Positions 25,592 through 25,863 of a DNA stretch of 58,346 nt are shown in pieces. Every line of letters begins with the position of its first letter. The first letter of the stretch is position 1. The position numbers and the translations under genes are program-made. Under the pieces are notes generated by a model, which was not told the DNA's origin, ran no database searches, and saw nothing but the letters and a program-made list of their open reading frames with translations. The DNA is from Akkermansiaceae bacterium (GTDB taxonomy: Bacteria; Verrucomicrobiota; Verrucomicrobiia; Verrucomicrobiales; Akkermansiaceae): assembly GCA_013001695.1 (NCBI GenBank), contig JABDMC010000198.1, positions 1 through 58,346 on the forward strand, given 5' to 3'.

Positions 25592-25647
25592 GCGTAGAGG
25601 GAAGCCGGGAGGCACAATCTGCCCCGGAAGGGCGGGGACCCGGGGGG

Positions 25648-25680
25648 AAAAAAAATCGCAGGGGGCTTGCGCCCCCTGCG
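25648..25680 (-). terminator. Intrinsic terminator read on the minus strand
   Basis: CGCAGGGGGC (25657-25666) and GCCCCCTGCG (25671-25680) form a perfect 10-bp stem with a four-base TTGC loop. On the minus strand it is followed by eight U residues (plus-strand A run 25648-25655). No protein gene ends here on that strand, so the terminated transcript must be non-coding or very small. Confidence 0.85.
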
Positions 25681-25863
25681 ACGGAGTCCATCAACCTCAA
25701 CACACTTTACAGCGATGCGAAGCTGACAACTGCTGTTCACCCTTACATGAAAACTGCGACTTACGTTGCGGTTTTCATAGGGGTTAGTCTCCTGAATCGG
25801 GAATCCGTTCGAACAAGAGGACACTTTTTTCGGTATTTTTTACAAGTCATTGAAGGTGAACAA
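25651..25863 (-). ncRNA. Candidate structured small RNA in the AT-rich island
   Basis: The 411-base gap between the divergent PpiD-like and DUF255 genes is far less GC-rich than its surroundings and contains nested pairings. P1 is TGTTCACC (25734-25741) with GGTGAACA (25855-25862). P2 is AGTCTCCT (25786-25793) with AGGACACT (25818-25825), one mismatch. P3 is ATGAAAACTGC (25747-25757) with GCGGTTTTCAT (25768-25778). A small CAGC/GCTG hairpin lies at 25710-25725. The minus-strand terminator fixes one end, so a minus-strand RNA of about 200 bases is favoured. P3 pairs slightly better on the plus strand (G-U instead of A-C), and P2 is followed there by T6 at 25825-25830, so strand is not certain. 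No known family was recognised. Confidence 0.5.

What the first reader, a model, noticed from the sequence alone, without database searches (positions are those of the whole stretch)
25651..25863. Candidate undescribed structured RNA in an AT-rich island between divergent genes
The region is much more AT-rich than its surroundings and holds a minus-strand intrinsic terminator with no protein gene before it, an 8-bp long-range pairing (25734-25741 with 25855-25862), an 11-bp hairpin (25747-25778) and a third stem (25786-25825) followed by T6 on the plus strand. The PpiD-like gene has its own promoter downstream of the terminator, so a separate RNA is needed to explain the terminator. No known family (6S, tmRNA, RNase P, SRP, known riboswitches) was recognised.
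Basis: partly seen in the sequence, partly recalled or inferred. Interest (0 to 1): 0.75.

Follow-up and report, generated by a model that had tools for sequence, protein, structure and literature searches.

The report
Multicopy small regulatory RNA in Akkermansiaceae
Between two genes of a Verrucomicrobiota bacterium lies the gene of a previously undescribed small RNA of about 130 letters, found in one to six copies in most lineages of its family outside Akkermansia and probably switched on by a stress-type sigma factor, so it looks like a new family of stress-response RNA in a phylum where very few are known.

Summary
The AT-rich island holds a real, conserved small-RNA gene on the MINUS strand (about 25778 to 25650). 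Upstream sits a promoter, TTCGAAC-N17-GACTAA, of the extracytoplasmic-function (ECF) sigma type; 82 of 96 copies have NAAC-N17-G[AT]C just upstream. Homologues (96 aligned, 1-6 per genome, some in tandem) occur in Akkermansiaceae (Roseibacillus, Haloferula, Luteolibacter and MAGs); no credible match was found in Akkermansia or elsewhere in the phylum. Compensatory changes are abundant: 30 of 32 pairs. No Rfam family matches. Best explanation: a trans-acting base-pairing RNA resembling the sigma-E RNAs RybB/MicA, but in genomes where no Hfq was found. In Roseibacillus the linker is complementary over 11 nt to a conserved start-codon hairpin of an outer-membrane secretin (10 of 11 orthologues). 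That target is a lead only: the 11-mer is not enriched over its control and the window's genome lacks this secretin. Sigma factor, targets and transcript remain unproven.

The parts
25822..25841 (-). A-rich UP-element-like stretch upstream of the promoter (AAAAAATACCGAAAAAA)
   Evidence: sequence; an A-rich stretch is seen upstream of -35 in most copies
25806..25813 (-). -35 element TTCGAACG
   Evidence: NAAC at fixed distance in 82 of 96 copies
25784..25789 (-). -10 element GACTAA (family consensus GTCTRA), 17 bases after GAAC
25650..25778 (-). predicted sRNA, about 129 nt (start inferred from the promoter; model R1 matches 25780-25647)
   Evidence: (132.9 bits)
25747..25778 (-). P1, 5' hairpin AUGAAAAC...GUUUUCAU with GUAA (GNRA) loop
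   Evidence: 10 of 11 pairs with changes on both sides
25731..25746 (-). nearly invariant linker GUAAGGGUGAACAGCA, predicted mostly unpaired; proposed pairing seed
25686..25730 (-). P2, variable stem-loop (GUU.UCAGC / GUUGA..GGAC)
25655..25682 (-). intrinsic terminator stem, GCAA loop
   Evidence: 12 of 12 pairs with double changes, 99.3% of cells paired
25647..25654 (-). T8 tract of the terminator

Best explanation
A stand-alone trans-acting small regulatory RNA of about 129 nt, transcribed on the minus strand from an ECF-sigma-type promoter and ended by its own intrinsic terminator. The three hairpins stabilise the RNA and hold the invariant linker GUAAGGGUGAACAGCA open (shown: conservation, covariation, predicted accessibility). 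The linker is the seed that pairs with the translation-initiation regions of target mRNAs and blocks or destabilises them when the sigma factor is active (inferred). Likely targets are envelope proteins: in Roseibacillus relatives the seed is perfectly complementary, over 11 nt, to a conserved start-codon hairpin loop of an outer-membrane secretin mRNA (complementarity shown; regulation inferred). No Hfq was found, so pairing would need no chaperone or a different one.
For: Homologues: BLASTN in 74 of 195 family genomes and 8 of 16 genera; in the phylum-wide sample credible model matches are only in this family. Covariation on 93 distinct copies: 30/32 pairs with double changes, 235 such cells against 47 +/- 10 in shuffles and 42-69 when slid; 89.4% of cells paired. 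Promoter: NAAC-N17-G[AT]C in 82 of 96 copies, 81 of them ending 5-6 nt upstream of the matched RNA; TTTGAAC-N17-GTCTRA gives 23 matches in 12 genomes against 2 for the reversed control, 12 of the 23 being sRNA copies recognised by the seed and one more (L146) by the model. ECF promoters typically have AAC in -35 and CGT in -10 (PMC3426412); sigma-E promoters of rybB/micA have GGAACTTTT and GTCAAA (PMC1804206). Copies lie beside unrelated genes, which suits a trans-acting RNA. Target lead: GTTCACCC[CT]TATG at the start of a secretin (PF00263) in 10 of 11 orthologues, identity 0.98 in the block against 0.53-0.59 further out; duplex -19.8 kcal/mol, and -23.2 in the variant L237, which loses seed pairs on one side and gains them on the other.
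Against: No expression data. The 11-mer seed complement is not enriched over its control in Roseibacillus genomes (10 non-sRNA hits against 12 control hits), nor clearly near ATG in another genus, where no conserved target emerged. The 0.98 identity is inflated because the 10 orthologues were picked by that block; it could also be conserved for the secretin's own initiation hairpin. The window's own genome has no match to this secretin, and the secretin gene occurs in genomes where no sRNA copy was found (G011, G013, G014; incomplete MAGs). No sigma gene among 30 examined shows a convincing autoregulatory copy of the promoter, so the sigma factor is unidentified. Hfq was not found in 10 genomes, unlike the RybB/MicA model.
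Confidence: 0.5

Rival explanations
1. The RNA is a decoy or scaffold: the invariant linker binds a protein (a global RNA-binding regulator, RNase or the transcription machinery) and multiple copies titrate it, as CsrB/6S-type RNAs do.
For: The linker is near-invariant across genera, more than is usual for a seed with diverging targets; the family is multicopy; in divergent copies the two halves UAAGGGU and AACAGCA stay while the link between them varies by a few bases (L146, L129, L134, L166, L167, L174), which suits a bipartite protein site; no enrichment of complementary sites.
Against: One linker per molecule, not many repeated sites; perfect 11-nt complementarity to a conserved start-codon hairpin in Roseibacillus.
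Confidence: 0.27
2. It is a leader or attenuator of the downstream PpiD gene.
For: Same strand and just upstream of a PpiD-like gene in 22 loci; a periplasmic chaperone would suit an envelope-stress promoter.
Against: Many copies lie beside unrelated genes: secretin, RNase D, RsmA-NUDIX, others. The terminator is the best-supported helix (99.3% of cells paired) and no alternative antiterminator pairing has covariation support.
Confidence: 0.1
3. The transcript encodes a small protein.
For: An open frame starting at the NTG of P1 (MKTA...FHVRVNS) exists in some lineages.
Against: Stop codons interrupt that frame in the window and others (MKTAT*), indels are not multiples of three, the predicted leader before it is only a few nt, and conservation follows base pairs instead of codons.
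Confidence: 0.03
4. A bistable RNA switch: the strand GUUUUCAU pairs either with the 5' GAAAAC (P1) or with GUGAACAGC in the linker, hiding the seed.
For: RNAalifold chose the second hairpin on alignment A1; L018 and L162 could form both hairpins at once (by eye).
Against: Little covariation for the alternative (1 of 8 pairs, 2 cells); P1 is far more stable (-10.6 against -2.7 kcal/mol).
Confidence: 0.06
5. One reading: one long-range domain with three stems spanning 25734-25862.
For: The complementarities are literally present in the window.
Against: The long-range arm is absent from nine relatives and lies upstream of the promoter; the third stem overlaps the promoter.
Confidence: 0.02

Closest known systems
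RybB and MicA (sigma-E-dependent envelope-stress sRNAs of enterobacteria; PMC1804206)
   Same: Short intergenic sRNA with intrinsic terminator and an alternative-sigma promoter (theirs GGAACTTTT / GTCAAA, here TTTGAAC / GTCTRA or GTCAAA); conserved promoter and conserved seed; possible outer-membrane protein mRNA as target, at the 5' end.
   Different: No sequence or structural homology (no Rfam match); 5' end is a hairpin, with the seed between two stems and not at the extreme 5' end; 1-6 copies per genome; Hfq not found; restricted to Akkermansiaceae.
Multicopy sibling sRNAs of other bacteria (LhrC, CcsR/cuckoo families; from my own knowledge, not tested here)
   Same: Several near-identical copies per genome sharing one single-stranded motif, stress-type promoters.
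   Different: Different motif, structure and phylum; here the second stem diverges strongly between copies.
CsrB/CsrC and 6S RNAs (protein-binding RNAs; from my own knowledge)
   Same: Small stable intergenic RNA; protein titration cannot be excluded.
   Different: No repeated GGA loops and no 6S-type single long hairpin with open bubble in the predicted fold; no Rfam match.

Membership tests
Any Rfam 15 family | Score at or above a family's gathering cut-off | tested here: not met
   No match in the window at gathering threshold; only chance-level terminator matches at E 2.7-6.9 for the 400-base region
Conserved structured ncRNA (general) | Covarying base pairs across homologues beyond controls | tested here: met
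   30/32 pairs, 235 cells against 47 in shuffles
Conserved structured ncRNA (general) | Detected transcript | not testable with these tools
   No RNA-seq data available
Sigma-E-type envelope-stress sRNA (RybB/MicA-like) | Alternative-sigma (ECF-type) promoter, conserved with the RNA | tested here: met
   By sequence only: 82/96 copies with NAAC-N17-G[AT]C; motif 23 against 2 controls. The cognate sigma factor was not identified
Sigma-E-type envelope-stress sRNA (RybB/MicA-like) | Intrinsic terminator | tested here: met
Sigma-E-type envelope-stress sRNA (RybB/MicA-like) | Pairs with 5' regions of outer-membrane protein mRNAs | tested here: inconclusive
   Secretin start site in Roseibacillus; no enrichment overall; this secretin not found in the window's genome
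Sigma-E-type envelope-stress sRNA (RybB/MicA-like) | Hfq dependence | tested here: not met
   PF17209 found in 0 of 10 genomes while it rings in 5 of 14 control genomes
Sigma-E-type envelope-stress sRNA (RybB/MicA-like) | Induction by envelope stress | not testable with these tools
   needs expression data
Cis-regulatory leader (riboswitch/attenuator) of ppiD | Fixed association with one downstream gene class | tested here: not met
   PpiD downstream in 22 loci, but many copies beside unrelated genes

The most novel reading that the evidence does not exclude
A large, multicopy sRNA family of the Verrucomicrobiota that independently evolved the sigma-E/RybB-MicA logic (ECF sigma, sRNA, outer-membrane protein start sites) without Hfq, in a network that also contains a second undescribed ncRNA with the same promoter next to mutL; or, alternatively, a decoy RNA for an unknown global RNA-binding protein recognising UAAGGGU...AACAGCA.
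Probability: 0.4. Interest if true: 0.72.

Novelty: new member of a known kind. Interest (0 to 1): 0.55.

Why it matters
A 2022 review counted only 8 sRNAs for the whole PVC group against 345 for Proteobacteria (PMC9029176). Here is a well-supported sRNA family with a model, named hosts, a promoter motif and one candidate target, in genomes where no Hfq was found. It makes testable whether an envelope-stress sRNA strategy arose outside Proteobacteria and how sRNAs work there without Hfq.

Tried and rejected
Rfam at relaxed thresholds: only chance terminator-like hits. Alternative hairpin UUUUCAU/GUGAA: hardly any covariation. An ECF gene carrying the same promoter in a Haloferula/Luteolibacter-type genome (G032): none convincing in 30 sigma loci; the best-scoring site (L190) lies inside the sigma gene's own coding sequence. 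L153 ORF behind one promoter match looked sigma-like to me but matches no Pfam family. Seed-complement-plus-ATG pattern in genus g7: no conserved target family. Bacteriovoracaceae pattern hit (L073): judged a chance match inside what looks like an ABC-transporter gene, 26.9 bits. Akkermansia hit G145 and the out-of-family model hits (L169-L173): terminators without promoter or seed. Small-protein reading: frame broken in several lineages. Literature: no paper on a Verrucomicrobia sRNA of this kind surfaced.

Full report
WHAT WAS CHECKED. The island between the PpiD-like gene (minus) and the DUF255/thioredoxin-like gene (plus) is AT-rich (40.5% GC against 58-81% in most neighbouring windows) and holds a strong minus-strand terminator. 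No Rfam family matches. The minus strand folds at z = -6.2.

CONSERVATION. BLASTN with the minus strand found homologues in 74 of 195 genomes of the same family, in 8 of 16 genera, often several per genome, including a second divergent copy in the window's own genome (G000:C143, L021). A pattern scan of named genomes places them in Akkermansiaceae: Roseibacillus, Haloferula, Luteolibacter and many MAGs. A covariance model (R1) confirms them and finds up to six per genome, some in tandem (L022, L023). In the order (240 genomes) and phylum (388 genomes) samples, the matches that survive inspection lie only in this family. Those in Akkermansia (G145) and in other families are weak terminators without the promoter or seed (L161, L169-L173). 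Several weak matches within the family are real by eye (L162, L164-L167, L174-L177), because the promoter or seed is kept.

ANATOMY. From 5' to 3' on the minus strand: A-rich stretch, TTCGAACG (25813-25806), 17 bases after GAAC, GACTAA (25789-25784), 5' hairpin P1 (25778-25747) with a GNRA-type loop in most copies, the nearly invariant linker GUAAGGGUGAACAGCA (25746-25731), variable stem P2 (25730-25686), terminator (25682-25655) and T-tract. On 93 distinct copies, 30 of 32 pairs change on both sides at least once, 235 cells are double changes (shuffles 47 +/- 10; slid controls 42-69), and 89.4% of cells pair. The alignment was fitted to the model, which leans towards the structure, but the slid and shuffled controls are far below. 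An alternative hairpin between P1 and the linker has hardly any covariation and is weaker.

PROMOTER. Checked without choosing copies by promoter, 82 of 96 copies carry NAAC-N17-G[AT]C, and in 81 of them it ends 5-6 nt upstream of the matched RNA. Three of the other 14 (L112, L094, L126) read by eye as the same motif with an 18-nt spacer; five Roseibacillus copies (L060, L063, L074, L051, L077) have lost it. The strict motif TTTGAAC-N17-GTCTRA occurs 23 times in 12 genomes against 2 for its reversal; 12 of the 23 are sRNA copies by the seed test and a thirteenth, L146, by the model. AAC in -35 and CGT in -10 are ECF hallmarks (PMC3426412), and the closest described motif is that of sigma-E at rybB/micA, GGAACTTTT/GTCAAA (PMC1804206). 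The sigma factor itself was not found.

INDEPENDENCE FROM NEIGHBOURS. PpiD lies downstream in 22 loci, but other copies sit behind a secretin gene (12 loci), beside RNase D/MetX, RsmA-NUDIX and others (these annotations of other loci are by eye, not by domain search). Together with the terminator this makes a stand-alone RNA more likely than a ppiD leader.

MECHANISM. The linker is predicted mostly unpaired. Hfq was not detected in 10 genomes. Searching 10 genomes of the genus and a sister genus for the complement GTTCACCCTTA gave, besides sRNA copies, four orthologous hits exactly at the start codon of a 477-aa secretin (PF00263). Ten of eleven orthologues have GTTCACCC[CT]TATG inside a potential start-codon hairpin; the block is 98% identical while the surroundings are 53-59%. 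In L237 the flanking letters change so that pairing shifts register and the duplex is kept (-23.2 against -19.8 kcal/mol). Limits: the orthologues were picked by that block, so the 98% is inflated; overall hit numbers equal the control; the block could serve the mRNA's own structure; this secretin was not found in the window's genome, and the gene is present in three incomplete genomes where no sRNA copy was found. It is therefore a lead.

VERDICT. A real, previously undescribed sRNA gene family: about 0.93 that the minus-strand RNA gene is real, about 0.75 that an ECF-type sigma factor drives it, about 0.5 that it acts by base pairing as described, about 0.27 that it is mainly a protein decoy. 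It works like a known kind (alternative-sigma sRNA) but is not homologous to any described family tested here.

Noticed in passing
L139, L150, L154, L160 (about 1500-1900 in the strand of the promoter match): A second conserved intergenic element, probably another undescribed ncRNA of ~250 nt, behind the same promoter type (CAAACAAGAAATTTCT...TTTGAAC-N17-TGTCTAAG), facing a gene that reads by eye like the 3' end of mutL; no Rfam match.
   Followed up: partly
L141 and L151 near 1500 on the - strand: A gene for a membrane protein that looks Wzz/polysaccharide chain-length-like by eye is preceded by the same promoter motif with a similar leader in two genomes.
   Followed up: no
L214, L218, L220, L222, L233-L237, L239: Conserved start-codon block (GACGACCACCGTTCACCCTTATGGTCTCGTC), potentially a hairpin, at a Roseibacillus secretin gene with no evident Shine-Dalgarno sequence.
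   Followed up: partly
L224, L225, L232, L293: Possibly degenerate sRNA-like 3' ends (GTAAGGGTGAACC then a terminator) behind what looks like a PEP-CTERM protein gene.
   Followed up: no
L060, L063, L074, L051, L077 upstream of the sRNA: Roseibacillus copies that keep the RNA but have lost the ECF-type promoter; a TTGTTAATAACTT block further upstream is shared by this genus and a sister genus.
   Followed up: no
L097, L099, L022, L023: Tandem or clustered sRNA copies, often directly behind gene ends, in Haloferula-type genomes.
   Followed up: partly
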